Assembly: GCF_000764305.2 (NCBI RefSeq)
Contig: NW_025935765.1
Location: forward strand, 1 to 64,000
Length of the DNA stretch: 64,000 nucleotides
Reading direction: 5' to 3'
DNA from: Hyalella azteca
Taxonomy: Eukaryota > Arthropoda > Malacostraca > Amphipoda > Hyalellidae
Numbering within the stretch: the first letter of the stretch is position 1; every line of letters starts with the position of its first letter. A program made the translations under genes and the position numbers. Below are positions 14,056 through 43,556 of this stretch, piece after piece. A model generated the notes under the pieces. The model saw only the letters and a list, made by a program, of their open reading frames with translations. It made no database searches and was not told the DNA's origin.

Positions 14056-14721
14056 GCACTTTATTTTGTCATCGAGACACAAGACTCGCTTGTAATAATG
14101 CTTTATTTTGTCACTGAGACATAAGACTTGGTGATAATAATGCTTTATTTTGTCATTGAGACACATGACTCGCTTGTAATAATGCTTTATTCTGTCATTG
14201 AGACATAAGACTTGGTGACAATAATGCTTTATTCTGTCATTGAGACACATGACTCGCTTGTAATAATGCTTTATTCTGTCATTGAGACACATGACTCTCT
14301 TGTAATAATGCTTTATTCTGTCATTGAGACATAAGACTTGGTGACAATAATGCTTTATTCTGTCATTGAGACACATGACTCGCTTGTAATAATGCTTTAT
14401 TCTGTCATTGAGACACATGACTCGCTTGTAATAATGCTTTATTCTGTCATTGAGACATAAGACTTGGTGACAATAATGCTTTATTCTGTCATTGAGACAC
14501 ATGACTCGCTTGTAATAATGCTTTATTCTGTCATTGAGACACATGACTCGCTTGTAATAATGCTTTATTCTGTCATTGAGACATAAGACTTGGTGACAAT
14601 AATGCTTTATTCTGTCATTGAGACACATGACTCGCTTGTAATAATGCTTTATTCTGTCATTGAGACACATGACTCGCTTGTAATAATGCTTTATTCTGTC
14701 ATTGAGACACATGACTCTCTT
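14056..14721. repeat. Satellite A, 42-bp monomer in 126-bp higher-order repeats (left half-array)
   Basis: About 16 monomers at exact 42-bp spacing (14059, 14101, 14143, 14185 and so on), each CTTTATTCTGTCATTGAGAC plus a variable half. Two monomer types occur: C (ACATGACTCGCTTGTAATAATG) and H (ATAAGACTTGGTGACAATAATG). The order is C H C H, then C C H C C H C C H C C C, so from 14185 the repeat unit is a 126-bp trimer. The left edge fades into unique DNA; the right edge is cut by an N gap while still in clean repeat. Because 42 is divisible by 3, the minus strand stays open for 242 codons with a 14-residue period; this is a repeat effect, not evidence of a protein. Confidence 0.95.
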
Positions 14722-14934
14722 NNNNNNNNNNNNNNNNNNNNNNNNNNNNNNNNNNNNNNNNNNNNNNNNNNNNNNNNNNNNNNNNNNNNNNNNNNNNNNN
14801 NNNNNNNNNNNNNNNNNNNNNNNNNNNNNNNNNNNNNNNNNNNNNNNNNNNNNNNNNNNNNNNNNNNNNNNNNNNNNNNNNNNNNNNNNNNNNNNNNNNN
14901 NNNNNNNNNNNNNNNNNNNNNNNNNNNNNNNNNN
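14722..14934. other. Assembly gap (213 N)
   Basis: All bases are N. Satellite A lies on the left and the unrelated satellite B on the right, both cut in mid-array, so the true content and even the join are uncertain. Confidence 0.99.
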
Positions 14935-15103
14935 TGCAGTAGCCAGCCCTGAGAGTTGCAGTAGTCAGCCCTGAGAGTCGCAGTAGTCAGCCCTGAGAGT
15001 TGCAGTAGCCAGCCCTGAGAGTTGCAGTAGTCAGCCCTAAGAGTCGCAGTAGTCAGCCCTGAGAGTTGCAGTAGTCAGCCCTGAGAGTTGCAGTAGTCAG
15101 CAG
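14935..15103. repeat. Satellite B, 22-bp monomer (right half-array)
   Basis: Seven to eight units of TGCAGTAGYCAGCCCTGAGA+GT. The first unit has AGCC, most later ones AGTC. The array starts abruptly at the N gap and fades into unique DNA at about 15103. It is in the same orientation as the B half-array ending at 41520. Confidence 0.95.
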
Positions 15104-16066
15104 TAATTGTTCGGTTCAGTTGCACTCGGCTTCGCCGCCTCATTTTGAACAGCTAAGCTAGCCTGATAATTTATAGAGTGGAGCTGGCAGAAATTAGGAC
15201 ACTGAATTAGACTCACACTAATGGTTGGCTGTAGCGAGCAAATGGTTGCGATAGAGAACCGATAAACTCCACTAAATGATCATAAAGCGATGCTCGCCGC
15301 CACATTAAGGCTTACTGCCAGGCCGCTCTTGTCGCCTTGTCTTGGCTTCTTTGTCGAGTCTTATGCCCTTATCGGCATATTATCTCATTTTGTAAAAAGA
15401 AAAATCCCATTATTAGGTAATGAAGCATTTTTTACCTGAATTTTGGATACTTAATAACCTAAATTAATGCTTTGTGTTGTATTAATATTTATTTTTTAAC
15501 TATTTTTTCCCGTTTAGTAAATAATGGCGGCATTTTATAACTCCATTTGCATGATACCTGACACTTTTTGCGTATATTTGGTCTTAGTTTTTTCAACTCC
15601 TTATAACTTATTTACGTCAAAAGTTTCTTGGTACCCATTAAGCAAATGTTGGAAAACTAAGCAAGAAAATGGGATAAGTCATCTCAGCAATTTATTGAGT
15701 GCATTTTTATCAGTATTCCGCATAGCCCCATCAACACAAACGGCTGCACGCGATGCAAAAGTTCAAGACATTTTTATAAAAACAAACATTTATAGGAGCC
15801 ACTAGCAATGCTTTCTGGTATTTGTAGGCGGGGCGTAATTAAGTAGATTTTTCTGTGCGACTTGTTGGCTCTAAGAGCCTCAATAATGAGAGGACATCTG
15901 CTCAGGTGTTGCCTTCGTAATGAAATGAGCATTTGAGGCACTTAAAGTCCTACGATCAAGCCCATTCATTAGGCTTAAGAGGCGCGTCGTTACGGAGGAT
16001 TTCAAGAGCTCTCTTCGAGCAGTCGCTCTGACTCTTAAGAAACCTTGTCGCTTCCAGTCCAGCGTC
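15104..16066. other. Unique sequence
   Basis: A frame of 93 codons at 15524-15805 has no recognisable domain. No RNA gene seen. Confidence 0.5.
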
Positions 16067-16537
16067 TGAACAACGCTAATGTGAAGGCCAGATGTGGACA
16101 ACATAATGTGAACAACGCTAATGTGAAGGCCAATTGTGGACAACATAATGTAAACAACGCTAATGTGAAGGCCAAATGTGGGAAAAATAATGTGAAGAAT
16201 GTTAATGTGAAGGCCAAATGTGGACAACATAATGTGAACAACGCTAATATGAAATCCAAATGTGGACAACATAATGTGGACAACGCTAATGTGAAGGTCA
16301 AATGTGGACAACATAATGTGGACAACGCTAATGTGAAGGCCAGACGGGGACAACATATGTGAACAACGCTAATGTGAAGGCCAATTGCGGAAAACATAAT
16401 GTGAACAACGCTAATGTGAAGGCCAACTGTGGAAAACGTAATGTGGACAACGGTTATGGGACACGAGTTAATGGAAAAAAGTATGTGTGTGAACAACGCT
16501 AATGTGAGGGCCAAATGTGGACAACATAATGTGAGCA
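16067..16537. repeat. Satellite D, 42-bp monomer
   Basis: About 11 units of GTGAACAACGCTAATGTGAA followed by GGCCAAATGTGGACAACATAAT. Substitutions (AAATGTGGG, AACGTAATG) and one badly worn unit at 16439-16489 interrupt it. It has the same period as satellite A but an unrelated sequence. The 42-bp period leaves open frames on both strands with a 14-residue periodicity; these are not credible proteins. Confidence 0.93.
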
Positions 16538-18346
16538 AGTTAAATATTGCTGATTTCAATTTGTTCTATTATATAACTAAATTTTTCGTGTAAAAATTTC
16601 ACGTTTATTTTTTTTTTTATAATGAATGTTAATTAAAAAGAATACTGGTTGAGGATACGAAAACAAATTAAAAGAAAATGACCACCTTTCTTCTGGCAGA
16701 AAACCCAAAAAGTTATTAGAAAATAAATTATTTTCCTAATATTAAATTATCATATGAAGGCACACCAAGAAAATAGATTTCACTTGTGATTGACAATTAC
16801 TAATTTGTTGAAAAATTAATTGTTTAAAAGTGAAAAGCTTAACTACTGTTGTTTAGAAGCTAAACATGATTAAAAGAGTTTAAAAAACATCAGACGAATA
16901 CAATTTCATCGCAGCACATTCACTCATGGACCAACGAACTTTAAATTTTCAATTGACCAATGATTCAACATAATCGGGATAGACGGCCTATCTAGAAATA
17001 CAAAAATGTTCCGAAATGCGATCAAGCGAAGACTGGAAGATGATAAAGAGCGGCAACAATGCAATTGATCATTCATAATGAATGCATAAATTAAGCAGTA
17101 ATTCAGGTGTCTGGTCCTGTCTTCACTCACCTCCGAGCAATTCATTGTCTTATTTGCCGTTATTTGTGCTCGTAATTCTAAGCAAATCGGAGTCTTTAGC
17201 ACGATAAAGGCGTAACATTTTACCTTCACTTGATTTATTTAGCCTTATGAATGTGGTTGTGCAGTATACAGTATAGCTGCCTTGTACTCTTGATAGACGA
17301 GGGTTCTGCCTGCTAATCAGATTATACTTAACATTAATTCGTGTATCATAATTAATAAACTTGATTATTATACGTTTAATTATTCTAATTAGACTGCAAA
17401 CTGATTATGTAGAATTTCTTGAAATAATTCAGGTAATTATCATATTTAGGAACTGAATTTATTACTTCATTGTACGCAGGCAGAGGCATTAAAATGATCA
17501 GACTTTACTACCCGGATAGAGACGCTTATTAGTGAATATTAGGTTTTAATCATAAATGATACCTTAATTGGAAACCTCAAAGAATTTCTGTATAATTTCT
17601 TTGTAAAATTACTTCGTTCTATTGGGTAATTCAACGCTGTTTTCATCACGTTATCAAAAGTTTCTTGAACTCGGATGAAGAAAAAAAGTTTCATTAAAAA
17701 CTTATTGTTAAGTTTTACTTCTTGAAAGTTATATGAGTAAGTCGCAAAATATTTTTCCCGATTCTGGACAAATAATTGCACTTAGAGCACAGACTAATGA
17801 AGAATAATTAAAATTTTGCTATAAATTTATGGATATATTCGGTAGTTAATAAAGTATTCATGTTAGCAATTTTTATATGTTAGCAATTCGAGCAATTATA
17901 TTGTATGTTAGCAATTCGACCATATATTCAGAAATCAAATTTGTTATGAAATCTGTCGAAATTTTATTTACTCGTTGACATACATCATTTCTTATTTACT
18001 TGTCACAAATCTTTCCCTTTTTAATAATTATTTGCTGAAGGTCTTTGAACGGCCTTTGTACTAACTTTTGTATGCGTAAAAAATTCCGTACAATTTCATT
18101 CCAGCCGAATTTATATAAAAAAATTACAGTAATGAACGATGGAAGAGTTTATGCGTAACTCATTTTCCACCAAATTATAACCGTCAAACAAGTGAGGCAA
18201 GCGCTTGTTTGAGATTTCCTATAATTCAATCCCGCCCTATTTTTTTGCTATGAATAAAGGAAAGTATCTGGATGAAATTCCACCGAGCACACTTACCTCC
18301 CCCATTTTCGCCAAGGAAGTGTGATTTCCAATAAAATATTTAAACT
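16538..18346. other. Unique AT-rich sequence
   Basis: Small local repeats of ATGTTAGCAATT at 17860-17925. The frames at 16924-17229 and 17539-17781 (minus strand) are unrecognised. Confidence 0.5.
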
Positions 18347-18795
18347 CACTTCCACTCAATTTCCGGAGTAGAAGCTAAACCAAGCGTCTGTAAGAGACTC
18401 TGTATTACCTTCTTCCTGCCCTATTTCCGGCGTTGAAGTTAGATTAAAAGTCTGCAATTAGGAGACTCTGCGTCGCTTACGTCCCTCCCTATTCCTATCT
18501 TTTAAGTTTAAGCAAGCGCCTGTAAGAGATCTTGTATTACTTATTTCCAGCCCTATTTCCGTCTATGTAGTTAAAGCATGCCTCTGTAAGAGATCCTGTA
18601 TTACTTATTTCCAGCCCTATTTCCGGTTATGTAGTTATAGCATGCCTCTGTAAGAGATCCCGTATTACTTATTTCCAGCCCTATTTCCGGTTATGTAGTT
18701 ATAGCATGCCTCTGTAACAGATCCTGTAATACTTACTTCCGGCCCTATTTCCAAAGTATAAGTTAAATTAAGCTTCCTACTTCCGGCTTACAATT
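18347..18795. repeat. 64-bp tandem repeat
   Basis: Exact 64-bp steps at 18521, 18585, 18649 and 18713, units starting TGTAAGAGATCCTGTATTAC and containing CCAGCCCTATTTCCGG. Older, more diverged units precede at 18389 and 18453 (the second 68 bp long), and half-units lie at both ends. Sequence age falls toward the middle, as expected for slippage or unequal exchange. Confidence 0.93.
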
Positions 18796-20065
18796 TTCAG
18801 AAGAAGTATCGCCGGGCAAAAATCCGCCATTTATGTTCGTTTCACGATCTGCCGACACCTTGTCGGGTATTAAGCTTTCCAACCTTTAGTGGGTCGTAAA
18901 ATTTTATGGTTACTTGACTATGGACACCGCGAGGAAAATTGGACTCGGGCAACCCTATGCCTAATACAGCAGTATCGCTCGATAAATCGGCTCACGATGC
19001 TTGACTTACGCCAGCATACAGATAAGATTCTTTGGTTGAATAAATATGGGGGTGATTAGCGTGCAACATAACTTGTAATGAAGGTCGTCATTCACTGTAC
19101 AATATAGAAAATAATGCCACGGATGTTCAGTTTCTGTCATTTGTTATTTATTTTCAATTAATCATATTTATTATTTTTAATTCAGACTACTGGCAATATC
19201 TACAATATACATAACGCATTTATTATTTTCTCATCTCTATGTTTGCAGAGAAGCGCAGGTGAAATGTGTAGTTATATTTCACATTTCATTCATTATTACA
19301 GGCTGGTTAGCGAAAAAATTCTCATTGGTCGAATTTTAAATCATATTGCTTCGTTTAAACTGCAGCAAAAAGAATCATTTTTTAATTATAGAATGAATAA
19401 ACAAATTCAGTCATGTCCCAGATAATAAATTTCTCTTAACAACGCTTTTTCGTAGTTTCATTGCATAAATATAACCTATTGTAGACTTCTTGTAATAAAA
19501 AAAATTATTACAGTAATATAAATGAATGTTATATTTTGTTCATTGCTTTGTTGGCTTGTTGGCATGCTTTGTTGGCATGCCATTGGCATGAAGGCAGCCA
19601 AAACAACAATAATATTATAATTAATGGCCAATGCGAGGATGAGTAAATGAATCATGTGGGCATTATTCATTAATAATGCACGCGATAATGCATGAAGACA
19701 ATCCATCCAAGAAGTCTCATTGCAATTAACCGAATCTCTGGATGAATATGAGGCAGAGTATAATGCAAAATAATGTATAAATGCAACTAAATGAGGAATG
19801 ACGCAATGAAAACAAATTGCGATATATGCATGACAAAATTGAGGCTCAATAATTCATAACACTCATCATTATGGTTCTTTTTTTCAATGTATTTGAATAT
19901 TAATATTTTTGTATCCAGTTATTCTCATTTTGATTGTGCAAGGATGCAACCATGCAGTTGCAAGAATATTTTTACGCTGATTTATTAACCTTCAAATATT
20001 TTATTGGTTGGAAAGTTCGCTATGATCTTTCTCATCAGCTTTCGAAACTTACCACGATGAAATTT
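18796..20065. other. Unique AT-rich sequence
   Basis: A GTTGGCATGC/TTGGCATG cluster lies at 19551-19590. The frame at 19476-19706 (minus strand) is unrecognised. Confidence 0.5.
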
Positions 20066-20591
20066 GATCTCATTAGCATTCATCTCATTATCATGTATCT
20101 CATTATCATATATTTCATTATCATGTATCTCATTATCATGTATCTCAGTATCATGTATCCCATTATCATGTCTCTTTATCATGATCTCATTATCATGTAA
20201 CTCATTATCATGTATCTCATTATCATGTATCTCATTATCATATATCTCATTATCATGTATCTCATTATCATGTATCTCATTATCATGTATCTCAGTATCA
20301 TGTATCCCATTATCATGTATCCCATTATCATGTATCTCATTATCATGTATCTCATTATCATGTAACTCATTATCATGTATCTCATTATCATGTCTCTTTA
20401 TCATGTATCTCATTATCATGCATCTCATTATCATGCATCTCATTATCATGCATCTCATTATCATGCATCTCATTATCATGCATCTCTTTATCATGTATCT
20501 CATTATCATGCATCTCTTTATCATGTATCTCTTTATCATGTATCTCTTTATCATGTATCTCTTTATCATGTATCTCATTATAATGTATTTG
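20066..20591. repeat. 15-bp minisatellite, about 35 units, with segmental sub-blocks
   Basis: Monomer TATCTCATTATCATG with variants TATCTCAGTATCATG, TATCCCATTATCATG, AACTCATTATCATG, TGTCTCTTTATCATG. A block containing CAGTATCATGTATCCC is present twice about 147 bp apart (20144, 20291). After 20410 it becomes homogeneous CATCTCATTATCATG, then TATCTCTTTATCATG. A 15-bp unit without stops keeps several frames open on both strands, giving five-residue repeats that are not real proteins. Confidence 0.95.
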
Positions 20592-20699
20592 CATCATCTT
20601 TGAAGCCAAGAAATTCAACCTAGTAGTTTCTTTTTCGATTCTACCTAGTAGTTCGAAAATTTTACTTCTTCAAGCATAATTTAATTTTCCCTCCACGAA

Positions 20700-21010
20700 T
20701 CATTTCTGTCTCGACACATCAGCATCCCTTCTCTCTCCAGCCTGCTCTCCTACCTTCACCAAACTCTTCTTCCTCGGCGCATAAAAAAACCCTTCACTCA
20801 TCACGCTGCCTTTGTCCCTTCACTAACATCTGCTCTATCAGCACAACACCAACCCTTCACTATTCAGGCTACCCTCGCCTCTTCACTAACATCTACTCTC
20901 TCACAAAATCACCAAGCTTCACTCTTCAGGCTATCCTTGCCCCTTCACTAACCTCTTCTCTCTCAGCACATCACCAACTCTTCACACTCTCAGCCTGCCT
21001 TTCTCCTTCC
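20700..21010. repeat. 62-bp pyrimidine-rich degenerate tandem repeat
   Basis: CTTCACTAAC recurs at 20819, 20881 and 20943 (62-bp spacing), with CTCTCAGCACATCACCAAC and CTTCACTCTTCAGGCT between. A worn copy precedes from about 20700. Confidence 0.8.
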
Positions 21011-21219
21011 TTTCCCGAAGCAGGTTCCCCTTTCCATCCCCTCGCTTACAGTCCGGTAGCTTTCCCCCGGTCGAGACAACTCCTATGAGGAGGAAGGTTA
21101 GAGTTAGCTCTGTTCTTTATGTTTTTTGTGTTTCCCGAGCGCAGATGCTAATGCAATTGGGTCCGCCCCTTGACACCTTGCCAATAATGGGAACATGGCA
21201 CGGGCGAGCGAGCTGCCTT

Positions 21220-21500
21220 TCTTAAGACCTATCGCTCTGCTCGACGATAACGCTTCTTGCTCGACGATAACTCTTTTCTATGAACAGTAAATCTTTCTCT
21301 CTCTCTTTTGAACTATGACTCTATTAGGAAAACTATATCTTTCTTAGCTAAGCAATGGCTCTCTCTGCTGAGCAGCACCTCTTTTCAAATTATACCATTT
21401 ACTGAACAATAATTTTCATAGCTGAAATGTTACACATGGCTAAAAATTTTTAATGCTCTTGAGCTGAGCAATGAATGTCTTAACAATACTTCACGACTCT
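21220..21500. repeat. Very degenerate repeat of TCTTTTYTGAACTAT/GAGCTAAGCAATG words
   Basis: Loose recurrences of CTCGACGATAACKCTT (twice, 21240-21273) followed by CTGAGCAATGRCTCT-like words. The period cannot be fixed. Confidence 0.4.
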
Positions 21501-23629
21501 TAGCTAAATCACACTTAGCGTTATTCGCCTACGACTATATTTACTAAGGGACAAACTTAGATCGTGTCACTTGATGTTTCATTTGAATTTCACATTTAAA
21601 ATAATATGATTATAATGCCAGATCGCTTTAAATGATGACTAGTATCTGTCTCTCACTATAAGGATGCTGTTTATTGTGATTCTTTTTCTAAAATATCTAT
21701 ACATATTCTTTTTTAACAAATATCATGCAAATTTATCTGATCTGAGGCTGAAGGAGTTTGATTCTCCAATTATTTTTCAGTTATAAATGAAAAATTTGAT
21801 GAAATTTTAAGAAAAGAAGTTTTGTCGTTTATGCATCGTCCAAGTGCGCGATACACTATAAGTCTTTCCGAAATTATGGTTATCAATAGTTTAAAATTTT
21901 CCTAATAAAATAATTATATTGTTGTAGTTGCAATAGCTAAACTGTAAAGTTAACTTCCACGCGACTCATTGATCGTTTTTCCCTCGTCCCAAAAACACTT
22001 TTCTGTTTGAAACAAAAATTCCAATTGAATTGTAACCTTGTAATATGACTGCCTCGACACAAATGTTTTCAGAATTGACGAATTCATATCATACGTTTCA
22101 TGAGACAGAAATAATATATTTTTAATGCATCGAAACGTCGCCATGTATTATTTGCTGCATTTCATCGCTTTTTAATGTGTCGGTCCGCACAACAGTTGAC
22201 CCTAGAGGAAGTTTGCAATTGCTTGGATTCCATTAGAAATTCAAAGCAATTTGTCGGTGTGGAAATTTAAAATATTATGTAGGTGGACAAGCAATACCGT
22301 ATGATAAACAATCAACAGTTGTTTTCATTTCAAAATGTCTGTTTGAAGGCGATCGAGGTCAAAAATTACTTGGCTGTAGAAGTTCGGTCGGAACTAATGT
22401 TTCCTCTGAAAAGTTATTTGTCACTTGTATTTGACGAGACACAATATTGCTGTGAAATAAGGAAGACTTGGCAGTCCAAGCTTTATTCGAACAAATGTCC
22501 ACTTAGCCGCAATAAAGAATAACTGCCATCAAATATAAATAAAAATCATAACGTAAATATAGCAATGAAACAGTCAATATTACATCATCTTCATAGCTAA
22601 CAATGTACGTGTTACAGAACTTACATTAATATATCACATAACGGCAGAGCTTAAGACCTTCTAGCTCGATAGATGCATTGAGACCAAGTATGGTGTTAGA
22701 AGCCAGACCATCTAACGATATGAACTTTAATCATTTAATCATTTAGTAGAAAGTAGTAGTAATCATTTAGTTTAATCATTTAGTAAAAAGGCCTATATTA
22801 CTAAACCTGCAGATATACAACACTTCTATATCGGATATCCTAATAACTTTTTTATGAGATTTATTAAGCGCATCAATAGATGAATTTTCCATTATCATTT
22901 TAAACTATTAGCAAACTATGCGAGTTGTGATTACATTCCGTTTCAATATTATTATACCAAATCAAGATTACACTAATTTCCTATGCTTCATATGATCGCA
23001 CTATTGAAGCCCAACATTGCTATACAAAATATCGTATAGTATCTCTCACTCAGATTCTTATTTGCACTCACAACAGAGAAATAACCAACATAAAAAGCAA
23101 CTTGGCCGCGAGTGTTGGCTTCTACAGCCAAACTTGTGCAATAATGTGCAGAAGAATTACCTCTTTCAAAATAAGTTTTGTTTTTAAAACTGCTACATGG
23201 CGCGCGTTTACGCAACACATGACGATAACTGTCGTCTTTGTTCTATGGTCAAACTATAGAACCATCACAGCTTGAAGATTTGCTCTAAAGCCTTGCACAA
23301 CTTTACACCTCCATCAAACGTTGTTCTTTGGGAACCTTTGGTATCCTTAAAACTTTAAAAAGTTTAAAGCATCGCGTGTGGGATTGGTGACACAAAGTAT
23401 TTTTTTCATTTCGAAGCCTTAGTGCAAGTTTTTATAGAAAGGAAACTCAACGTGAAGTAGTTATTCTATGTGACGTGGTCATGTAACAATCAGCAAAAAG
23501 TTTTAAAAATTACGACATGGGTTTTCAAGAAACGATAAACGATGTAATTAATCGATTGAGTGTATTCATGGTCGTGAAAATATTTCTCAGCAGGAATTTT
23601 CTCTTCTCAATTCGCAATATCAATCCAGT
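21501..23629. other. Unique AT-rich sequence
   Basis: A small AATCATTTAGT cluster lies at 22729-22785. Unrecognised frames at 21950-22144, 22283-22522 and 22988-23218. Confidence 0.5.
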
Positions 23630-23725
23630 TATATCGAGCTGTTATATTATTATACAATCCTGTTACAGCGAGCTATTATATTGCTATACAATCCTGTTAT
23701 ATTATTGTGTACAATTCTGTTTGCA
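23630..23725. repeat. Short repeat of about 38 bp, 2.5 copies
   Basis: GAGCTRTTATATTRYTATAC followed by AATCCTGTTAYA appears twice, then a partial ATTATTGTGTACAATTCTG. Confidence 0.75.
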
Positions 23726-25799
23726 TCAATCATTCAAGCCACGTGGATGCAGAGAAGAATTGAATGTAAATAAATACGTCCTCTGCCACGTGGTTGCCGG
23801 TAGCACTTCAATCAAGAGCGCTCGTGGGCGACGGTGACCAGCCACTCTGCGGCTTCTTGAAGGAACAAATATTTTATCAAACTAAGCTGTTCGAACTAAT
23901 TAAATGAAAACAGAATTCCGCCTCGAACTATTGGTGTGAAATATTTTATTCGCATCCTGTGCGCTGCGAGAGCGGACGTGAGAGATTAGTTCTATTGCGA
24001 CTATATAGAGGGAAGCCTTAACAAGTTTAAATGCAGTGGTAGTGATGTAACATTAACTATTGATGGTCGTCTGTACCCTCACCAAGACGCTTCAGAAATA
24101 CTGAAGAGGCAAACGCAGGAAGGCACGCTGCAGTAATTTGAAGCAATTACAAGTCAAGAAAGGAAACACTAATTTGCAGCACCTCTATAGTGGACAATTA
24201 GCATCTGAAGGCTAATGAATCACATGGACAATGATGTTAAATTAGCCGTAATGTGGGCAATTTTAGCATTCTTTGTTTGAACGTTTGTATTGCTCTCCTT
24301 TGTCTCATCTGCTGCATCAAGTTAAAAGGATGGCGGCTGACCGTCGGTCATTAACTATGATTTAAAATCTAATAATAACAATTTTGTATGATTACATGAT
24401 ATTACTCAAAAATTTCGTAAGATACTCACTCTAGATGAATTTTTTGTAAAATGATGTGAATAAAAATTTTGTAGTAATTATTAATCCAATCATCTGATAT
24501 TGAAGTAACGTTCAATTTTCTTGATTTTATTGCCAGATCAACCAAAAAAATCCCGTCTCATGCAATACCGTCAGCATTAGGGTGAACTTCGCTGCGGTCA
24601 TAATAGCTTTCAAGTTCAATCAGTCGAATCTCAACGACCATCGAAAAATTATTCGTCAAAACTTCCATCGCTTAAGAATTAGTCAAGCCATTAATTTTTA
24701 TCCCTGAGATTCCTTTCAAGTCACCTAAATAAATGCTTGAATTCATCAAAGTCATTCATAGAATTCAAGTCACTTATATTCAGCGTGACCAGTGATTAAA
24801 GAAAAGTCTGGTCCTCAGTCAACGAACTTTTTGGGGCCGCGACTTCATATTTTGACTCTTTTTCGGGCGGAGTTCGTTTGAATCAAAGGATAATTATTCG
24901 AGCAATTCAAAAATTACGTCTTTGATGCCAATTAATTACTGACAAGGGCCATCCATCTAAAGCAAGCTTTGACCTAACCAACTCCACGCCAAACGACCGC
25001 ACCAATTTGCTGACGTCTTCTTGCATTCATAATCGTGGAAATAGTTTTTTCATAGTTTCATCATAATCGTGGAAAATTTTTTAAATCGATCCCCGGGATG
25101 AAAAAAATTTTCAAATATTTTAAAAGTGATATTAGCTAATTACAAGTATAATTCGTTCGATAATGAACACATTCACAGGCCAGGAACACTCAACATTTTC
25201 TATTACTAAAACATTTGCTAGGGCGATTGAAAATGTTCTACAGCGGAAGATAACATTTTCTTCAATCTGAGACCCACATTCATGGTAGGAATATTTAAGA
25301 TTATTCCTGTATTTCCACATAAAATGCATTTCCTGTATAATATTGAATATAAATAAATGGACCTCATAGTTTTTCCAGTTAAAAGAAGAAAAAGTACATA
25401 TGCCAATTTTAGCTATATTTTTTATATTCCCTCCGCTTTGACTTTTTTATGAAAATCACAAAATTTCAAAATTATATGATCTGTGCATATTCATTGGACC
25501 GATAAATTTCCACCATTAGTAACAATATATTAATAATTTTAAGAGCAAATTATTCACAATTGCAGCAAGAAAGTATAAGCTTGTATCTGCCGATAAAAAG
25601 AGATTCAGTTAAGTAAATAAATATAATTGGATTACTATATGGAACTCTTGCTTGAAAGTTAGGACGCTGAATTCTCCTTATTCTCATCCGAGTTATTTCG
25701 TACGAACTCTTTTTCGAGCTAAAAACTCTGTTCGCTCAACATTTCCAAGAAAATAATGATATGCGACGCTCACTATTGAGCCGAAAATTTTATGCTTGC
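23726..25799. other. Unique sequence
   Basis: 23740-23860 and 23940-24010 are a little GC-richer. No gene supported. Confidence 0.5.
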
Positions 25800-31690: not shown

Positions 31691-32029
31691 TCATTTATTC
31701 CGCATTGCGTGCTGACGAATGAACTTCATTCACTCATAGTCGTATTTTATTTTTATGAGTGAACATGAGGGTATCCATACGACATCATTGATTCCACATT
31801 GCGTGCTGACGAATAAACTTCATTCACTCATAGTCGTATTTTATTTTTACGAATGAACATGAGGGTATACATACGACATCATTTATTCCACATTGCGTGC
31901 TGATGAATGAACTTCATTCACTCATAGTCGTATTTTATTTTTACGAGGGAACATGAGGGTATACATACGATACCATTTATTCCATACTGCGTGTTGACGA
32001 ATAACTTCATTGACTCATAGTCGTATTTT
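31691..32029. repeat. 94-bp tandem repeat, 3.6 copies
   Basis: Units start at 31691, 31785, 31879 and 31973, exactly 94 bp apart, each TCATTTATTCCGCATTGCGT-like and containing CTTCATTCACTCATAGTCG. Units are very similar, so the duplication is recent. The last unit stops after CATAGTCGTATTTT. Confidence 0.96.
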
Positions 32030-33640
32030 CGGTGGCCGCCGAATTTTCAACAGTATTCCGGTTGCATAGAGTTATTTTCAAAATTGTGTAAAAAGCTTTA
32101 TAACATTTTCATTTGAGTTCTATTCAAACCAGTTGCACAAGCACTTCTCAAGGATATCACATGGTGTAATTTTACGTTTGATTTATGATAGATATAAGAA
32201 AAAAGGGAAAGAGTAAATCTGCGTGAGTTAACACGAACAAATTATTTCAAATGTTTTGAAGAAATTAAGCTAATGGAATTGTATGGATTACCACTTTCAC
32301 TGGCAATTAAAAAATTATTTATGATGAGTGATCTGGAGTGTCCACCGATGGTTAGTTATAATGATCAGTATATACTGATCATTCGAATTCACTCGCATAG
32401 CGAGGCTCGCACACAAAATGCACCAAAAAAATATCATTTATTCATCCTACTCGCGCTACGATCAGTGTGCCACTCGAGTATACACATAAGTATTAATACA
32501 AAATACTGATTTTTCGTTTCACTTAAATGTCAATATGATTCTTTGACTCGCTATCTAGTTAAAATTGTCAAAAACCTCACAACTTGCAATGAAACGGCCA
32601 TACAATTTGTCTTGAATACCTCACGACCACAAACAGAGACTCAAATACGAAGTCTGGTTCTCATATCAAGAGCCCCCAATTTACATGAGAAAAGTCCAGG
32701 CATGAAATATGTTCAAATGTTGCCCCTGACTCCAGTAAACAAAACAGACAGTCATCTTATTTGCGACGAATGCCTTCATACCGCAAGATTTGATTGCTCG
32801 CCTCGTGGCCATCGTGCGGAGCCACTGCGGCGTAACAGACGCTATTTCCTTCTCTCGTTTATGGAGAAGATCTTGCGTATCTTCAAATTTTATTGGCGCT
32901 TTGCTCAAGATTTTAGCTTCAGGTATGAAAACAAATAAGATAATAAGAAGCCTGAGAATGTCGGGAATGCATTCTCGAAATATAAATACGTTTATGTTTT
33001 CTGAGACGTTTAATTTATGGACGTCACAATTTATTCCTGGAACTGCAGTTCAGAATTATTTTACATATCATAGGGTCTGGTAATTAAAGTTTGCCGACAG
33101 AAGAGAAAAGTTTGAAGCATATCATTCAGTATCATCGTTGTTCTTACTATTCCACATCATTGTGGTACTCACTATTCTACACCATCATGACCCTCACCAT
33201 TCCAAACAATCGAGACTAAATTATTCCCTATCTATGAGACGATAAATGAATCAAAAACCAACTGGCATTCAGCACACCAGAGAACCACAATGGCGCCGAC
33301 ATTGCAGTCCAGGCTCAAGAAGTACATTCCTTTCGCGAGACAATGCATGCCACATGAAATGGAATGAAAGGAAACCGTCAAATTGGTGAAGAGGGCCGCC
33401 TGCTGAAGTTGAGTCTGTTCCCTAATCCTACCCCTGTCGCCTGTACGCGACTCACAGACGCGCGCAAAGTTTGAGGCACTCGCGGCGAATGCTGATATCG
33501 ATGGGACACTGTTTTAAAGACGCTCACTCACAATAAAATGCTCACCAACAGCTCCTATACAATTCCAGGGTAATTCTACATGCAAGTCCCGTAGTACAAG
33601 TTTTAGCAGCATGCACAGGCGATTTCCGTTGCTCCTTTTT
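32030..33640. other. Unique sequence with a small palindrome and a worn repeat
   Basis: A 24-bp perfect palindrome lies at 32360-32383 (own entry). At 33130-33235 the words ACTATTCCACATCATTG, ACTATTCTACACCATCATG and ACCATTCCAAACAATCG recur about every 30 bases. The frame at 32543-32938 (131 codons, plus strand) has no domain I recognise. Confidence 0.5.
32360..32383. repeat. Perfect 24-bp palindrome
   Basis: AATGATCAGTAT followed directly by its reverse complement ATACTGATCATT, with no spacer. Role unknown; it could be a dimeric binding site or a replication artefact. Confidence 0.9.
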
Positions 33641-33769
33641 AGCACATTTTCTGATTTATGGAAAAAAGTCCGCCCGTCCGTCTGTCCGCGAATTCACGGA
33701 CGGACGGACGGACGGACGAGAAAATGCGCGCTCTGTCACTCATTGCAGTGAGTACTGATCTAAATATAT
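33641..33769 (-). mobile_element. GTCY hairpin element, copy 2
   Basis: Reverse orientation. It begins AGCACATTTTCTGATTTATG (worn right arm), then GTCCGCCCGTCCGTCTGTCC, then (GGAC)n, then GAGAAAATGCGCGCTC and the palindrome-derived CACTCATTGCAGTGAGT. The left arm is intact; the right arm has changed bases. Confidence 0.75.
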
Positions 33770-36700
33770 TTTTCTAGTTTCGTCGCTCCTAAAACTATTA
33801 AAACCATTTAAGAACAAAATCTTTGGCTTTTTTCTATACTAAATGAACACCATTGGTTCAGAATCTTTCCCGAAAATAACAAAATCATTAAATATAAATT
33901 ACATTTTTTCATGCTTCATCAACATCATCAACTATTCTAAGATGCAACAATGCCTATTAAATATATCGTCTTTAGACAGTGTTTAACAGTCCTGATCTCC
34001 ATATCCATTTAACTTAATCACGTTATTTTCTCACAATTAGGGTAGTTATTGCTGCAATCAATGCTGCAAAAAATTCATTCGCTCCAAAAAGCGAATTAGA
34101 ATTATGGTTCAGTTTTTTTTAAACTTGATATGAATTTCGGCTATCCATAATTGAAGGTATAATTTGTTTAACAAAAAATTGATTAAGTTTTTTAGCATTG
34201 GTTTAGTTTAACCTTCAGATTCTACCTTTCATAAAGCCTTTAACCTCTATTTCTTTATTACTCTTAAAAAAATATCTGTACAAACAATGCATGCCTCAAT
34301 TGCCGTCATTCTTCACAAAAAATACTGGTAGATCATTATAGTTCTATTCAACCGAGGTTATATTGCCCCATTGTGCATCATTCATTGCCTGATTTTACTT
34401 GCATCAATAACATAATGATAGAAATGTTGATGAATAGAATTTTTCTTGTCTTCAGTCATGAATGAGCTATGATACAAATACGTGACTGAAAGACTTCAAT
34501 ATTTTAGAAATGACGTTTACCTGATTAATGATTGAGATTTATTAATATATGGCATTGAAAATTGCTATTTGAATGAACGCTAACCTAGACCATTATCTTG
34601 TACCTGGACTTCTTTATTATCATCTCAATATTTCAATTAATTTAAGAAAAATCAACGTTATACAAGTCTTTCTAGTGACAGACTTTAAATTGATCGAGAT
34701 GAAATACAGATTTTAAACAGTGAGCGTCCACTGACGGGTGTAACTATCTTTATTACTTATCTTATTAATCGTTCGTTAATCTCAACATATTAGTCAGTCA
34801 TCCAAAATATATATAGTAGTTATCCCTACCACGTTCTTCGGTAATCAGAACCTGGTCTAAGGTCTAAGCATTCGTCTTAAGGCGCCTCATTCCCTTCAAA
34901 AATATCTAAAATTTTCTCCAAATTTTAGCTTTCTACACATTTTGGAATAACATTTTATTAAAATAATATACTGAATCTATTCAAAAATATCGTAGTGAGT
35001 GAAACTTACTACTGCAGGGGGTATATCAAACAGAAAAATTCAAAGTATTCATACTGTAGCAAAGTTTTCACCAAGAAAAGACAGTTCGTATAAACAGAAA
35101 ATTCTTTGAGAAAATCTTTTGTCGGTGGATGGATTTTGGCAGGAACGAAGTCAAGCAAATCTTCGGGTCGTAAAGATAACGAATAGTTTTACAGTTTTGT
35201 CCTCAGGGGCTTGGCCATTGGGAGACCGTGTCCACGTCCAACGCAAACGAAATTTCTTCCTCGCAAACCTTTAAACCAACACCGGCCACTAGGAAGTCGG
35301 TTTTCTTTAATAGTTTTAAAACAGTTTTATGTTCACAATAATATAGTTTTTTCCGATATAATTCTGTTTTTCACGTTGTGGTTGATTTTAGAACTGGGTA
35401 CGTGAAAATTTTCAAGTATACCCTTAAAAATATTCATTGCCGTGATTGTAAATTTAAAAAATAAATTATTTTAAAGCTGCCAAAAGAAGTTACTGTATGA
35501 AAGATACATATATATGTTTGTTATTTGAGATCAGAATTACTCACTAATCTATGAAAATAATACAATAGGCCTACCGATGCTTTGTGTGAACGCGACCTGA
35601 AACTGATAAGGAAAGTTCCCAAGGGGTCCACGCGTGCTCAGCCTCCTCCGCAAACTAAATTTAAAACCAACAAAAGTTCCTAAAAAAAAAGTTATTCTGA
35701 ACATTTGAAGAGATGTGAATTTTCCTCCATGAGTGCATCAAACAAAAATTGGAAAAATAATTTAAATTTGTTCATATTTTTCATTTCGAATGCTGGCCCA
35801 AAATAAGAAAGTGATTGAAATAAAATAATTATACAAATGAAATGTAAAAGTATACTGAATATTTCAGAACTTGAGCTATTCGTTAATTTCATTTCTTCTG
35901 CAAATAATAAGTCATGAATTAAAGAAATGGTTTCACTATAAAGAAGATTTAAAAATATTGACCTCAATAACGTTAATAAGGCTTGATAAGTTTACATCAT
36001 AGCCGTATAATGCTAAACATTCATGTACAGAGATGAACGATGCTTCCAATATTTGTATTCCCATATAGGCTTTATTCAACGAGTCTCCCTGTCCTAAGGC
36101 CAACTGATCTAAACAATTTTAATCAATCTTACTTATGCGGAGATGACAACAATCTTCCCCTTCTTGCCTTATTATTAAAATTAACTATATTTCATCTGTT
36201 GATTTCAAATGGGATGACGGTTTATTTTGATACAACAGGCGGAGCCTCTTATCAAGGAAAATAATGATCCGAACAAAGTATTAGCATGGAATTTGAACTA
36301 GAAGGACATCAAAAATGTTACTGAAAATTCCTGCCTGACTTATTATGATCACCTTTTTCAGGGCTTAAGGAACTGCCTGCCACTGTGGTTGGATGAAGCC
36401 ACTAAATTATCAGACAATTAAATTAAATTGAAGGACTTAATAACATTAACATGGTTAACAACCTTTCTAGCACTAGAAGATAATCATGTTTACTAGAGAA
36501 TCTGCATCGTGGAACTTTCAAAAAATCAACAAGAAAGTTGAAACGCCCTCGCATATAGAGGCAACGCTCTAAAGCTCGCTCGAGTTGAGCGTCACGTCAG
36601 GTTTACGACCGTCATAATTGAGTGTCTACAACGCATCCGTTAATAACGTCGCCGTGTTGTCGTTGTCTGCTGAACTTACGTCACTATACGTAACATTCAC

Positions 36701-37546
36701 CTTCGAAGCTGCGGAAAAATCATTTTTCGCTTGCAAATTATGTAAGAATTTAAGGATAAAAGATTAAATTTAATGAAAAGTAAAAATTCAGTAAATCATT
36801 TTTGCGGCTATGTAAATATAGTGTCGGCATCGGTTATAAAATCATAATCTGCATTTTTCAAATTTGTCCGTCAATGTGAACTTAACATTTCAATATTTGT
36901 TTATTATATTTTTGCTATTCAAACCGTGTGTTATGCAAACCTCTACGATGAAAAGGCTCGCAATATTCTCTATAATTTGAAATTAAACGAAGCGAATAAT
37001 TTTTCACTAATCGTTTACAATTCACAATTTTCCATAAAATAATTGCGAAACAAATCATGTGGCTTTTCCACACCGCCAAGCCCCAGCATGGGCTGGTCTT
37101 GTAAGCCTTCAATGACCAAGAAGGGCACCGGCCCCCATACTATGTGGAGCGATTGGAGCTGCATATTACCTTGTTGGAAAGATATGAGTAATCAATGAAA
37201 ATGTCCAAATCCCTTTTCTGTATCCAATTCCTAGAAATAATACCTGAATAAAAGAATTGAAGTTCAAAAATGTCCTCTATTCACAAATTTTAAAATTTCA
37301 TAAGTTGATTAATTGAACCCTTTCACTCCAAACAATTAACATTAAGAAAATATGTAGTCGCATCTAATGACGACATATGAGCACTTGACTCTTTTTAAAG
37401 GAGATGGTATCACCTGAATATCCTTGGGTACATTCGAACGCGAGCCCAACGAAGCACATCCACGATAGATAAACTCATTAAAAATTCGCTACATTTGGGA
37501 AGCGCTGCACTCCTGCCCCTTCCGGTGCTGGAAGTCATGCACCATA
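33770..37546. other. Unique AT-rich sequence
   Basis: No gene, RNA gene or clear repeat. Short frames at 35692-35967, 36040-36264 and 36915-37112 are unrecognised. 36530-36730 is somewhat GC-richer. Confidence 0.5.
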
Positions 37547-37712
37547 AATGTTACGGCAAGTGGCCTAATGTTGGTTACTGGAATCACTTTCTTGCAGCCA
37601 AATGTTGGTTGCTAGAATCATTTTCTTGAGGCCTAATGTTGGTTGCTGGAATCATTTTCTTGAGGCCTAATGTTGGTTGCTGGAATCATTTTCTTGAGGC
37701 CTAATGTTGGTG
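37547..37712. repeat. Satellite C, 34-bp monomer (left half-array)
   Basis: Units of AATGTTGGTTGCTGGAATCA followed by TTTTCTTGAGGCCT. The left edge is worn (ATGTTACGGCAAGTGGCCT, TTGCAGCCAA), and the last three units are clean and identical in type to those at 41559. The array is cut in mid-unit by a Tn5 mosaic-end sequence at 37713. Confidence 0.95.
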
Positions 37713-37731
37713 CTGTCTCTTATACACATCT
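37713..37731. other. Nextera/Tn5 mosaic-end adapter (assembly artefact)
   Basis: Exact 19-mer CTGTCTCTTATACACATCT, the Tn5 transposase mosaic end used in Nextera libraries. It sits exactly between satellite C and satellite A. The minus-strand reading contains DVYKRQ, part of the known artefact peptide this adapter produces. It is not biological sequence. Confidence 0.98.
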
Positions 37732-37912
37732 TCATTGAGACACATGACTCGCTTGTAATAATGCTTTATTCTGTCATTGAGACATAAGACTTGGTGACAA
37801 TAATGCTTTATTCTGTCATTGAGACATGAGACTTGCTTGTAAAATCGAGGCGTAAACTGGCTTTTAATAAAGTTATATTCTGCCACCGAGTCGTAAGACT
37901 GGCTTTTAAAAA
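37732..37912. repeat. Satellite A, 42-bp monomer (right half-array)
   Basis: Starts in mid-unit (TCATTGAGACACATGACTCG), one C-type then one H-type monomer identical to those at 14.2-14.7 kb and in the same orientation. Units then become worn (AAATCGAGGCGTAAACTGGC, CCACCGAGTCGTAAGACTGG) and fade into unique DNA by about 37912. This is a natural right edge. Confidence 0.95.
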
Positions 37913-40463
37913 TGTATTATGATTTTTTCCTTCCCTAAAATGGAATCACAATAATTTGAGATTTTTTTCACTTCTTAAAATTACTTTACACTTCTGCGAA
38001 ATTCTTTAAAAAGAATTCTTTTAAATTCTTTAAACGCTAAACTGATTTCAAAGAGTTGAGCTGGTCTGACATTCATTATTGTTTTACCAATACATCGTTC
38101 AACAGCTCTACAATACCCAATCTGGAATCCAGTGACTGCATTAAAACCTATTCTCCCACTTTCAAAATGTACGTTAATAACAAACCCTATTTGTCAAAAT
38201 TTCTTCGACCGACGGGAAAAGAACTTCAAAAACCCAATAATCGAAGATATTCTTTCCTAGTTTTGATTTCAAATTTGCAAAGTTTCTCGGTAGATTTCTT
38301 TCACTGAAATAATTCCAAATAAATAATATATTTCTTAAACATCAATTTGACACTCATCCTTTCCGGAGCTTTGTCACCACCTCATTTGGCAAAGTAGCTG
38401 TACGCCCATTTTCATCACTGTGCATCTCGAACGAAAGCTCTATGATGAAGAGGACAAGCAAACCACAGACCATTACCCAGTTTTTCCGCTCATGAACCTT
38501 GGACGTATTATGTACGGCCAACCATCCGCAAAATACTAGCATCCATCACACCGCCAAAAATTAGCAAGATATGTTTCGTGTCACATGAAAGACCGGCAGC
38601 TCTGAAGAGCTTTCAATGCCCGCGAAGATCCATTCGGGCGAGGGTAGCATTGCAGTGTAGGAAAGAAATGCAACACTGGGATGTTTCTTCCCACACACAT
38701 ATTGGTTTCTATAGTCTTGCTGCTCAAGTGCGTTGCTGAAACAGCTTTCTTATGCAGTTGCAATCAGCTAATGGAGGGTCCGCTAGACTCTGATGACTTC
38801 TAAAGGTAATCTCGCCTGATACGCCTCTCGACAGCACGACGAATCCTTCGTCATCAGACGATCCTATAGAACTTTGGGACTCTCACTGATCCTTTAACTG
38901 CTTACATGCAAATTTTTCTTTTATCCTAATCACCTATCTGAGTGAAAATTATTCATGTAGAATTTTTTCAATAATTTTCATTTTTTCCCAACCTCTTGTC
39001 CAAGGAAAGTGCCCTTTCAGTGGGCACTTTCCTCAACAAAAATATATTTCCATTCAGATTTGTTATTGCATTGGATTTTGAAGTCGTTTACGGCATTTTT
39101 CACAAACTAGTCTCTTATATTTAACCCATTGATAAAAAATCTTTACACTGACAAGCATTCCAAACTATTTTGCCCTGCTAACTGACATCACAGTCGTTAT
39201 CTTTTAATTTCTATCAACGCATGATATTTCTATCAAAAAGATCCAATGGCCTTTTAACCTCTGCATCTTTGTTGGGTTTTATTCATATGACGGCCATTCG
39301 ACAAATTTTTGTATGCCTAACATCATTTCCTTACGCTTGATTGTCTCCAGTTTCAATTGTAAAATGATAGACTCGTTTAGTTCACCAAATACACCCAACA
39401 CCATCACACCTTTCGATAAATATGATAATTTTTTTGTGTATTAATTATTCTTCATTTCCATATTTTGACTATTGGATAATAGCCTAGAACATTCAAATTT
39501 AAATTATTCAATTAAATTTTGTGTATTCCTTCCCGACTTACTTTTAATGACTGTAAAATTACGTCCCTATGAGCAGGCACTAACAGTCCGCGAAATACAA
39601 ATTTTAAACGTATGGTACTAATAATTAATTTTAGTGTATAATAACTATTTCTTTTAATCCTCCCAAAAAATTTTTCTGTATTATGAGAACTTTTTTCATT
39701 CATTTTTCACCTTTTTTTATTTCCTTTCAGATCGTTTTCAGTATTTGTAAAATTTAAGAGAAACAAGCCAGAAAAATGCAGCTAAAAACGCGATTAACTT
39801 TAAATCATTGCTTCAATTCTTCATTCCGTTCTATTTCCTTCCTATGTTATCCCTCTGATTCTCATATTATATAATAAATAAAAAATAAACATAGGAAAAT
39901 TTTAATTTATTTATTATTCAATCGATTTGACAGGAAAAATTTGAAGGCAAAGTTATAAATCAAATTCTGATCAAGTTATTTCATACATTTCATGCGAGAA
40001 ATGTAATTTAGTTAAATTTATTAATCGCTGTTCATGAACTAATTGCTGGATACGATAGGCTTACTAGAAATTATTTTCATTTACAGTTTCATCTAATTCT
40101 AATCCTATCACCACTTAAATCTTGTTTGTTGTCTTGTCAATCTTAGCATACAAGTTTACTAAAAAATTTCGTATATTTCGCGGTAGGCAAAACTTGTAAT
40201 CCTGTAAGCCAACGTACGCTTGGGACAGCGCAGGCGCACAGCAGATCACAGCCGCGGCACGCGCCCCTAAGTGAGATTGATGGCGAGCAGGGAGGCTTTG
40301 GTTGCCCATGACGGATGGCCGCATCGGGGCCGGGCAAACACGCGCTCAACAGCTTCTGATTTGCAGCCCTCGAGCTCACTGCTGCACATGCACAATGCTC
40401 CTGACTTTTCTTCGTTCGACAGCTGCTAGGCTTGTACTTGTACCGTCATACTCCTGACTTTTT
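37913..40463. other. Unique sequence with a hairpin and a GC-rich patch
   Basis: A perfect short hairpin lies at 39003-39033. 40195-40400 is GC- and CpG-rich against an AT-rich background and is open on the minus strand (40143-40379). I do not recognise the translation, so it is at most a possible exon or promoter-proximal island. Confidence 0.5.
39003..39033. repeat. Perfect 12-bp stem with 7-base loop
   Basis: AGGAAAGTGCCC, loop TTTCAGT, GGGCACTTTCCT. Too short for an animal pre-microRNA. Function unknown. Confidence 0.85.
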
Positions 40464-40616
40464 AGCGCATTTTCTCATTTATGAAAAAAATGCACTATTG
40501 TGCTCGCCATGTCCGTCTGTCAGTCTGTCTGTCCGTCCGTCTGTCCGTGACCTCAAGTTTTCGTCGACGAGAAAATGCGCTCTCTGTCACTCACTGCAGT
40601 GAGCATTGAGTTATAT
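40464..40616 (-). mobile_element. GTCY hairpin element, copy 3
   Basis: Reverse orientation, complete. AGCGCATTTTCTC arm at 40464, ATTTATG spacer, GTCY run (GTCCGTCTGTCAGTCTGTCT and on), TTTTCGTCGAC spacer, GAGAAAATGCGCTC arm, then ACTCACTGCAGTGAG and AGTTATATTTTT. The two 13-bp arms are perfectly complementary. Confidence 0.8.
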
Positions 40617-41411
40617 TTTTGAAGATTTTTTTTGCGCCGTTATCCACCGACTTCAAGATTATTTGTGCTACGATTTTTTTGAAATTTTTTCTACTGTCAT
40701 GCTCTCAACTCGAGTACATTTTTACTGTCAGACACTCTATTTCTTTGTAACTTTTTGCTCCATCATGCGCACGTCCGGCTTTTCAGATTTTTTGCAAAGA
40801 ATGGCACACGGCTTGAAGATTTAGCTGATGCAACTGGAGAAAATTTTTTCTTACCTTCTCTAGCCTTTGTTCTATTCCCAAGTCAAACTTTGACTTTTCT
40901 AGTCTTACTCTGAATATTTTCTCTCTAGTCTTACTCTGAGCGCAGAATATTTAACATTATACCCACTACTCTGACCCTGTACTTGCATCATCCACGTGTT
41001 ATTCAGATTTCAGCGTAAATCTTCATTTTTAATTCATCCTTAGAATATCATATAATTAAATGACTCACGATTATATGTTTCGCTCTGCAATCGTATCACA
41101 ATTGTCACAATACGATCTCTGAAATATCGATTTCCAGTTAATTTACGTATAAGATTTTAAATATTTCGCGAATGAGTTGAAATAATCGTTTGTTTCCGTT
41201 TTCTCAGCGTTCGTTTGCACTGAAAGTATGCTAAGTTGTGGAAAAAGCTTTCCAGTAGTAGTCTTAATGAATTATAAATTTTAAATCCAAACTAAAGAGA
41301 ACTAATAAAAACGCTAATCGGCACATGATGTCAGGTACACAATGATGAAATATTGATATACATTTCTGTAGATTATTTCATGAGAACTTTTTTGTCATTT
41401 TCAGTTACATA
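40617..41411. other. Unique AT-rich sequence
   Basis: TCTAGTCTTACTCTGA occurs twice (40897, 40924). No gene recognised. Confidence 0.5.
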
Positions 41412-41520
41412 AAGTAGTGAGTTGTAGTATTTAACCCTGAGAGTTGCAGTAGCCAGCCCTGAGAGTTGCAGTAGCCAGCCCTGAGAGTTGCAGTAGCCAG
41501 CCCTGAGAGTTGCAGTAGCC
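41412..41520. repeat. Satellite B, 22-bp monomer (left half-array)
   Basis: A worn first unit (GTAGTATTTAACCCTGAGAG), then four clean units of the AGCC type, cut in mid-unit at 41520 by the mate-pair junction. Same orientation as 14935-15103, whose first unit is also AGCC type. Confidence 0.95.
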
Positions 41521-41558
41521 CTGTCTCTTATACACATCTAGATGTGTATAAGAGACAG
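41521..41558. other. Nextera mate-pair junction adapter (assembly artefact)
   Basis: Mosaic end CTGTCTCTTATACACATCT (41521-41539) directly followed by its reverse complement (41540-41558), which is the standard circularisation junction of Nextera mate-pair libraries. The minus strand reads SYTHLDVYKRQ, a well-known contaminant peptide in protein databases. It lies exactly between satellite B and satellite C. Confidence 0.99.
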
Positions 41559-42372
41559 AATGTTGGTTGCTGGAATCATTTTCTTGAGGCCTAATGTTGG
41601 TCGCTGGAATCATTTTCTTGAGGACTAATGTTGGTTGCTGGAATACTTATCTTGAGGCCTAATGTTGGTTGCTGGAATCAATTTCTTGGGGCCAAATGTT
41701 GGTGGCTGGAATCACTCTCTTGGGGCCAAATGTTGGTTGCTGGAATCACTTTTTGAGGCCAAATGTTGATTGCTGGAATCACATTCTTAGGGGCCAAATA
41801 TTGGTTGCTGGAATCACTTTCTTGAGGCCAAATGTTGGTTGCTGGAATCACTTTCTTGAGGCCAAATGTTGGTTGCTGGAATCACTTTCTTGGGGCCAAA
41901 TGGTGGTTGCTGGAATCACTTTCTTGGGGCCAAATGCTGGTTGCTGGAATCGCTTTCTTGAGGCTTAATGTTTGTTGCTGGAATCGCTTTCCTAAGGCCA
42001 AAAGTTAGTTGCTGGAATCACTTTCTTGAGGCCAAATTTTGGTTGCTAGAATCACATTCTCGCAGCCAAATGTTGGTCGTTGAAATTGTTTTCTTGCAGC
42101 GAAATTTTATTTGCTGTAATCGATTTCTTGAAGCTAAAAGTTGGTTGCTGAAATCGGTTTCCTGCAGAAAATTGTTGGTTGCTGTAATTTCTTTCTTGCA
42201 GCCAAATGTTGGTTGCTGGAATCGTTTTCCTGCAGCCTAATGTTGGTTGCTGGAATCGTTGCTTGCAACAGAAGGTTTGTTGCTGGTATTCTTCTTTTGT
42301 GGACAAATGTTGGCCACTGCAATTGCCGTTTTTGGTCGAATGTTTGCTGCAGCAATTGCATCCTTTCAATGT
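41559..42372. repeat. Satellite C, 34-bp monomer (right half-array)
   Basis: About 24 units. The first ones are AATGTTGGTTGCTGGAATCA plus TTTTCTTGAGGCCT, identical to those ending at 37712. They grade into CACTTTCTTGAGGCCAA units, then into worn units (CGTTTTCCTGCAGCC, CGTTGCTTGCAAC) that fade at about 42372. Frames through it on both strands are repeat artefacts. Confidence 0.95.
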
Positions 42373-43435: not shown

Positions 43436-43556
43436 AAACTTTATACTTTATACTTTATATACTTTATAAACTTTATACTTTATACTTTATATACTTTATA
43501 AACTTTATACTTTACAGATAAACTTTATACTTTATATACGTTATACAGGAGATAAG
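43436..43556. repeat. TATACTTTA-rich 32-bp tandem repeat
   Basis: The unit AAACTTTATACTTTATACTT plus TATATACTTTAT occurs about three times, with an ACAGATAAAC interruption at 43514. GGAGATAA words lie on both sides (43430, 43549). Confidence 0.85.

What the first reader, a model, noticed from the sequence alone, without database searches (positions are those of the whole stretch)
14056..42372. Two large blocks appear swapped: three satellites are each split into complementary half-arrays
Satellites A (42 bp), B (22 bp) and C (34 bp) each occur exactly twice. In each case one copy has a natural worn left edge and an abrupt right end, and the other an abrupt left end and a natural worn right edge, all in the same orientation. 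A: left half 14056-14721, right half 37732-37912. B: left half 41412-41520, right half 14935-15103. C: left half 37547-37712, right half 41559-42372. Every abrupt end meets a different satellite through an N gap or an adapter. Joining like to like gives one unbranched order: 1-14721, 37732-41520, 14935-37712, 41559-64000. Monomer subtypes at the cut ends also match (C units with TTTTCTTGAGGCCT on both sides; B units of the AGCC type; C/H order in A).
Basis: partly seen in the sequence, partly recalled or inferred. Interest (0 to 1): 0.9.

Follow-up and report, generated by a model that had tools for sequence, protein, structure and literature searches.

The report
Misplaced contig glued by sequencing adapters
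Three repeat arrays look cut in half most likely because the genome assembly put a 3.8-kb piece of DNA in the wrong gap and closed the joints with leftover laboratory adapter sequence, so this is probably an assembly error and not a real rearrangement of the chromosome.

Summary
Their six cut ends meet at three joints: a 213-N gap (A|B), a 19-bp Nextera mate-pair adapter half (C|A) and the full 38-bp palindromic junction adapter (B|C). The full adapter occurs 5585 times in this 519-Mb assembly, its reversed control 0 times. It is library debris.

Joining like to like gives one order: 1-14721, 37732-41520, 14935-37712, 41559-end. More simply, one 3789-bp contig (37732-41520) belongs in the N gap but was placed in the next gap, inside array C. 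Without it, C closes on itself.

Contig C7 shows similar cut arrays at adapter and N joints. At 3 of 24 sampled sites (two in one locus) the flanks are inverted copies across the adapter, as a palindromic false overlap would give. No reads and no second haplotype copy were available, so the order is inferred. The rearrangement is most likely not biological; its value is a warning about this assembly.

The parts
1..14721 (+). Block X: scaffold start up to the cut end of satellite A
   Evidence: (N gap begins 14722)
14056..14721 (+). Satellite A (42 bp, 126-bp higher-order unit), left half: worn left edge, cut right end
   Evidence: two places found in the genome
14722..14934 (.). 213-N scaffold gap, A|B joint; probable true home of segment S
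   Evidence: placement is inference
14935..15103 (+). Satellite B (22 bp), right half: cut left end, worn right edge
14935..37712 (+). Block L (22,778 bp) from B right half to C left half
37547..37712 (+). Satellite C (34 bp), left half: worn left edge, cut right end (the last base before the adapter departs from the unit)
37713..37731 (+). 19-bp half of the Nextera mate-pair junction adapter, exact; C|A joint
   Evidence: 0 mismatches; mean 0.02 matches expected by chance at up to 3 mismatches
37732..37912 (+). Satellite A, right half: cut left end, worn right edge
37732..41520 (+). Segment S (3789 bp), the misplaced contig, from A right half to B left half, with adapter sequence directly outside both ends
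   Evidence: single full match apart from a short dispersed repeat
41412..41520 (+). Satellite B, left half: worn left edge, cut right end
41521..41558 (.). Full 38-bp palindromic Nextera mate-pair junction adapter; B|C joint
   Evidence: 5585 exact copies genome-wide; palindrome checked
41559..42372 (+). Satellite C, right half: cut left end, worn right edge
41559..64000 (+). Block Y, from C right half onward (scaffold C1501 is 997,797 bp)

Best explanation
This is a short-read assembly artefact. The real chromosome most likely carries one array each of A, B and C, in the order X(1-14721)-A-S(37732-41520)-B-L(14935-37712)-C-Y(41559 on). Contigs broke inside each array because short reads cannot cross them (inferred). 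The small contig S was put into the L-Y gap and not the X-L gap, where 213 Ns remain (inferred). Reads of a Nextera mate-pair library that still carried the circularisation adapter were used to build or close the joints, leaving a half adapter at C|A and a full adapter at B|C (presence shown, role inferred). The 38-bp adapter is its own reverse complement, so any two adapter-bearing ends overlap falsely in either orientation. That is how unrelated ends could be glued (palindrome shown, gluing inferred from sites with inverted flanks).
For: Three satellites found only at this locus are each split into complementary same-strand halves. All six cut ends lie at three assembly joints: N, half adapter, full adapter. 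The full adapter occurs 5585 times (control 0), about one per 93 kb, and the 19-mer 6573 + 6528 times, leaving 1931 halves without an exact partner. The adapter and its 38-base pair form are described, with the statement that unclipped reads mislead scaffolding, in PMC3928519 (passages seen). The same 38-mer is named as a circularisation adapter in PMC7357533 (passage seen).

At 24 adapter sites outside C1501, 11 have an N within 500 bp (5.75% of 2000 control positions), 7 (two in one locus) have a tandem array on at least one side (11.9%), 3 (two in one locus) share inverted words across the adapter (0%), and 5 (two in one locus) share direct words (9%). Removing S alone makes L and Y meet like to like in C, with matching units at the cut and GCAGCC-type units near both outer edges. 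Contig C7 shows a comparable case.
Against: No reads, optical map or second haplotype was available. The N gap is 213 bases although the missing piece is at least 3.8 kb.

A mate-pair circle, read literally, puts the sequence right of the adapter upstream of the sequence left of it, at insert distance. For B-adapter-C this fits the window order (C at 37.6 kb, B at 41.5 kb) and not the proposed order. For C-half adapter-A it needs A upstream of C, which is so in both orders, about 23 kb (window) or 26.5 kb (proposed). That exceeds the 12 kb that PMC3928519 gives as the kit's limit, but PMC5427498 reports Nextera libraries of up to 27 kb (passage), so it is not excluded. The insert sizes used here are unknown.

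The adapter sites are a non-random sample (best hits and first-listed contigs). Only 7 of 24 touch a tandem array, so most adapter sites say nothing about satellites.
Confidence: 0.88

Rival explanations
1. The block order in the window is right. Each satellite really exists as two arrays lying side by side (A next to B, C next to A, B next to C), and the adapters and Ns only mark poorly closed spots inside those composite arrays.
For: The B-adapter-C joint, read as a true mate-pair circle, fits the window order at about 3.8-4 kb, and the C-half adapter-A joint would fit it with an insert of about 23 kb, a size within the Nextera range reported in PMC5427498. The scaffolder had mate-pair links that we cannot see.
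Against: It requires three satellites found nowhere else in the genome searches each to be truncated once on the left and once on the right, exactly at assembly joints, with compatible unit subtypes at the cuts.
Confidence: 0.07
2. A real transposition of a 3.8-kb segment between arrays occurred in the sequenced animal or in one haplotype.
For: Tandem arrays are fragile sites (general knowledge). The permutation is a simple three-break move.
Against: All three breakpoints hold library adapter or N. The full adapter occurs 5585 times in the assembly. No second haplotype copy was found.
Confidence: 0.02
3. The joints are artefacts, but the true order differs from both the window and the like-to-like order, because other contigs that are missing or elsewhere lie between the halves.
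For: Gap lengths are unknown, and in C7 one displaced segment ends at a joint with neither N nor adapter.
Against: Like-to-like joining leaves no free end. The outer array edges are worn and the inner ends are homogeneous, as expected of one array.
Confidence: 0.03

Closest known systems
Nextera (Tn5) mate-pair junction adapter left in an assembly
   Same: Exact 19-bp half at 37713-37731 and exact 38-bp pair at 41521-41558. Lengths and layout match the 19-base adaptor and the 38-base forward plus reverse-complement pair described in PMC3928519, and the letters match the 38-mer printed in PMC7357533.
   Different: Here it survives inside scaffold sequence 5585 times. The passages seen describe it in library preparation and reads.
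Hidden scaffolding errors from mate-pair libraries
   Same: PMC9635638 (passages) says that mate-pair reads can join distant contigs through common repeats and leave hidden errors.
   Different: There the errors were assessed through single-copy genes (BUSCO). Here they show through complementary half-arrays of single-locus minisatellites, with adapter at two of three joints.

Membership tests
Nextera mate-pair junction adapter | Two 19-base adaptors, one forward and one reverse complement, 38 bases in all | tested here: met
   (41521-41558 exact; the 38-mer is self-complementary); only the 19-base half at 37713-37731
Nextera mate-pair junction adapter | Occurs at many sites with unrelated flanks, as debris would | tested here: met
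   5585 exact copies; 24 sampled sites have differing flanks
Nextera mate-pair junction adapter | Present in the raw mate-pair reads of this project | not testable with these tools
   no reads held
Scaffold order error (misplaced contig) | Breakpoints coincide with gaps or artificial sequence | tested here: met
   three of three joints
Scaffold order error (misplaced contig) | An independent map or read set contradicts the order | not testable with these tools
   no reads; no second copy of the flanks found
Biological rearrangement or transposition | Junction made of genomic sequence only | tested here: not met
   all three junctions contain N or adapter

The most novel reading that the evidence does not exclude
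The self-complementary junction adapter acts as a universal false overlap, so a sizeable share of its 5585 copies in this assembly mark wrong order, wrong orientation or collapsed sequence. Complementary half-arrays of single-locus minisatellites would then reveal such errors, and suggest the right order, without any reads.
Probability: 0.4. Interest if true: 0.35.

Novelty: not a real feature. Interest (0 to 1): 0.18.

Why it matters
Anyone using this assembly for synteny, structural variants, gene models or satellite biology would take the joints as real. The genome-wide adapter count (5585 full copies) shows that the debris is not local. The complementary half-array test is a cheap, reads-free check for ordering errors.

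Tried and rejected
Looked for a second haplotype copy that would settle the order. Queries from the end of X, start of L, end of L and start of Y each gave one match, their own place. S gave itself plus 42 partial hits on 38 other contigs, all on a repeat of about 165 bp (40 of 1986 candidates scored, so partial copies of the rest of S could be hidden).

Looked for a host gene crossing the joints. By eye, the list of 150 ORFs shows no clear host gene there. I tested 4 of the 150 against Pfam, and two, both of a retrotransposon at 60-62.6 kb, matched. The other 146 were not tested.

Tested whether literal mate-pair circles explain the joints. B|C fits the window order and not the proposed one. 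C|A would need an insert of 23-26.5 kb. At the report check I found that a paper I had opened (PMC5427498) reports Nextera libraries of up to 27 kb, so I withdrew the claim that C|A rules circles out, and moved the best explanation from 0.90 to 0.88 and the first rival from 0.05 to 0.07.

Literature: searches on adapter or junction contamination and misassembly returned 1, 0 and 2 papers, of which I opened one (PMC5427498, passages). The 38-mer itself was found in 1 paper (passage read). Broader searches gave 16 papers (15 listed) and 125 (12 listed), of which I opened one (PMC9635638, passages). PMC3928519 was reached through a reference list (passages). I saw no description of adapter-glued half-arrays in these passages and listings. 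I did not identify the species, and I cannot name the assembler.
Full report
The window is the first 64,000 bases of contig C1501 (997,797 bases) in an assembly of 518,993,365 bases and 4890 contigs, eukaryotic by its size and content (my inference). The only N run is 14722-14934.

Satellites. Tandem Repeats Finder lists A at 14059-14721 (42 bp, with a 126-bp higher-order unit) and 37732-37842, B at 14935-15101 and 41435-41520 (22 bp), and C at 37562-37715 and 41559-42257 (34 bp). Unit-by-unit comparison shows full-quality units up to each cut and worn units at the outer edges. Whole-genome searches find A and B only at these two places each. The C query found two C places and 81 further hits on its adapter part (40 of 528 candidates were scored, so weak C relatives could be missed, and the tool warns about common words). 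Of 30 array loci in the window, the only other families with more than one place are a 9-bp one around a retrotransposon and a 12-bp one.

Joints. A|213 N|B; C|CTGTCTCTTATACACATCT|A; B|38-bp palindrome|C. A scan of the window for the 19-mer with up to 3 mismatches finds three copies, all exact and all at two of these joints, against 0.02 expected. The 38-mer is its own reverse complement. It is present 5585 times in the genome, with 0 for the reversed control. The 19-mer is present 6573 times forward and 6528 reverse, so 988 + 943 halves lack an exact partner. NextClip (PMC3928519, passages) describes the Nextera mate-pair protocol: a 19-bp biotinylated adaptor at each fragment end, circularisation that joins two of them, a 38-base pair, and scaffolding misled by unclipped reads. 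PMC7357533 (passage) prints the same 38-mer as a ring adapter for circularised 4-kb fragments. The two adapter joints are therefore library debris.

Order. If S (3789 bp) is simply lifted out, X-L-Y stays in place and L|Y closes inside C. S then fits the X-L joint, where an N gap still stands. A single misplaced small contig is thus the shortest description. Unit subtypes give modest support. The last whole left and first right C units agree over the 33 array bases compared, but two other right units are nearly as close, and some right units were mis-cut by the script. GCAGCC-type units lie near both outer edges of C. B beside the cut is AGCC on both sides. A is uninformative at the cut.

How the adapter could do it (inferred). 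Because it is palindromic, two unrelated sequences that both run into it share a 38-base overlap, in either orientation. I looked at 24 other adapter sites, from loci. This is not a random sample; duplicates, C1501's own site and sites too near a locus end (one, L007 at 99) were dropped. Of these, 11 have an N within 500 bp, 7 a tandem array on at least one side, 3 shared inverted words across the adapter and 5 shared direct words. At 2000 control positions from the window and C7 the fractions were 5.75%, 11.9%, 0% and 9%. Sites in one locus and overlapping controls are not independent, so these are descriptive only. At locus L009 the same array runs forward, reversed between two adapters, then forward again. 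L010 has an inverted copy of its left flank to the right, which could also be a genomic inverted repeat.

A second case. In contig C7 (10,001-28,033 read) there are four full adapters and one half adapter. A 30-bp satellite occurs at 23908-24327, starting after an adapter, one base and an N, and at 25297-26011, ending at a single N that is followed by a 28-bp satellite. At 13718 a third satellite, also of 28 bp, meets that same 28-bp satellite at a single N. A copy of the same element at 12.3-13.1 kb shows the order flank, satellite unit, middle part, whereas the second copy has the middle part (24299-24645) upstream of flank plus satellite (24674-25322 and on). This resembles the window, but with reservations. 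The matching pieces differ widely in identity (about 72 to 99.8%), one further piece lies at 16549-16685, one end of the displaced piece has neither N nor adapter, and more than one real copy of the element is not excluded. One search also finds related satellite on two other contigs (71-72%). The other C7 array next to an adapter (19 bp, 17107-17885) has only diverged relatives elsewhere (68-74%) and gives no second half, so it does not repeat the pattern.

Against the reading. No reads or haplotype copy exist here to prove the order. The N gap (213) is much shorter than S. A literal circle reading of B-adapter-C fits the window order. The same reading of C-half adapter-A needs A about 23 kb (window) or 26.5 kb (proposed) upstream of C. 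That is beyond the 12 kb given in PMC3928519 but within the 27 kb reported in PMC5427498, so it decides nothing. The library sizes used here are unknown.

Verdict. An assembly artefact, with high confidence for the joints (my estimate 0.98 that they are not genomic junctions) and 0.88 for the order X-S-L-Y. The satellites themselves look like ordinary single-locus minisatellites.

Noticed in passing
whole genome G000: 5585 exact copies of the 38-bp mate-pair junction adapter and 1931 further halves without an exact partner remain in the assembly, roughly one full copy per 93 kb.
   Followed up: partly
window 59723-63504: A non-LTR retrotransposon on the minus strand (endonuclease PF14529 in 61467-62633, reverse transcriptase PF00078 in 60420-61463) lies inside an inverted repeat (59767-60093/63099-63425, 95%; 60097-60172/63021-63096, 99%), with 9-bp GTGCAGAGT arrays at 59723-59766, 62810-63016 and 63429-63504.
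   Followed up: partly
window about 40451-40634: A dispersed repeat of about 165 bp, 90-97% identical on 38 other contigs among the candidates scored, perhaps a SINE (not tested).
   Followed up: no
C7:12300-26866 (L044, L045): A repeated element with internal 28- and 30-bp satellites appears at least twice, with one copy's parts apparently out of order at adapter and N joints.
   Followed up: partly
C7:23868: The sequence just before this adapter ends in TGTATAAGAG, the same letters as part of the adapter; possible microhomology at the false joint.
   Followed up: no
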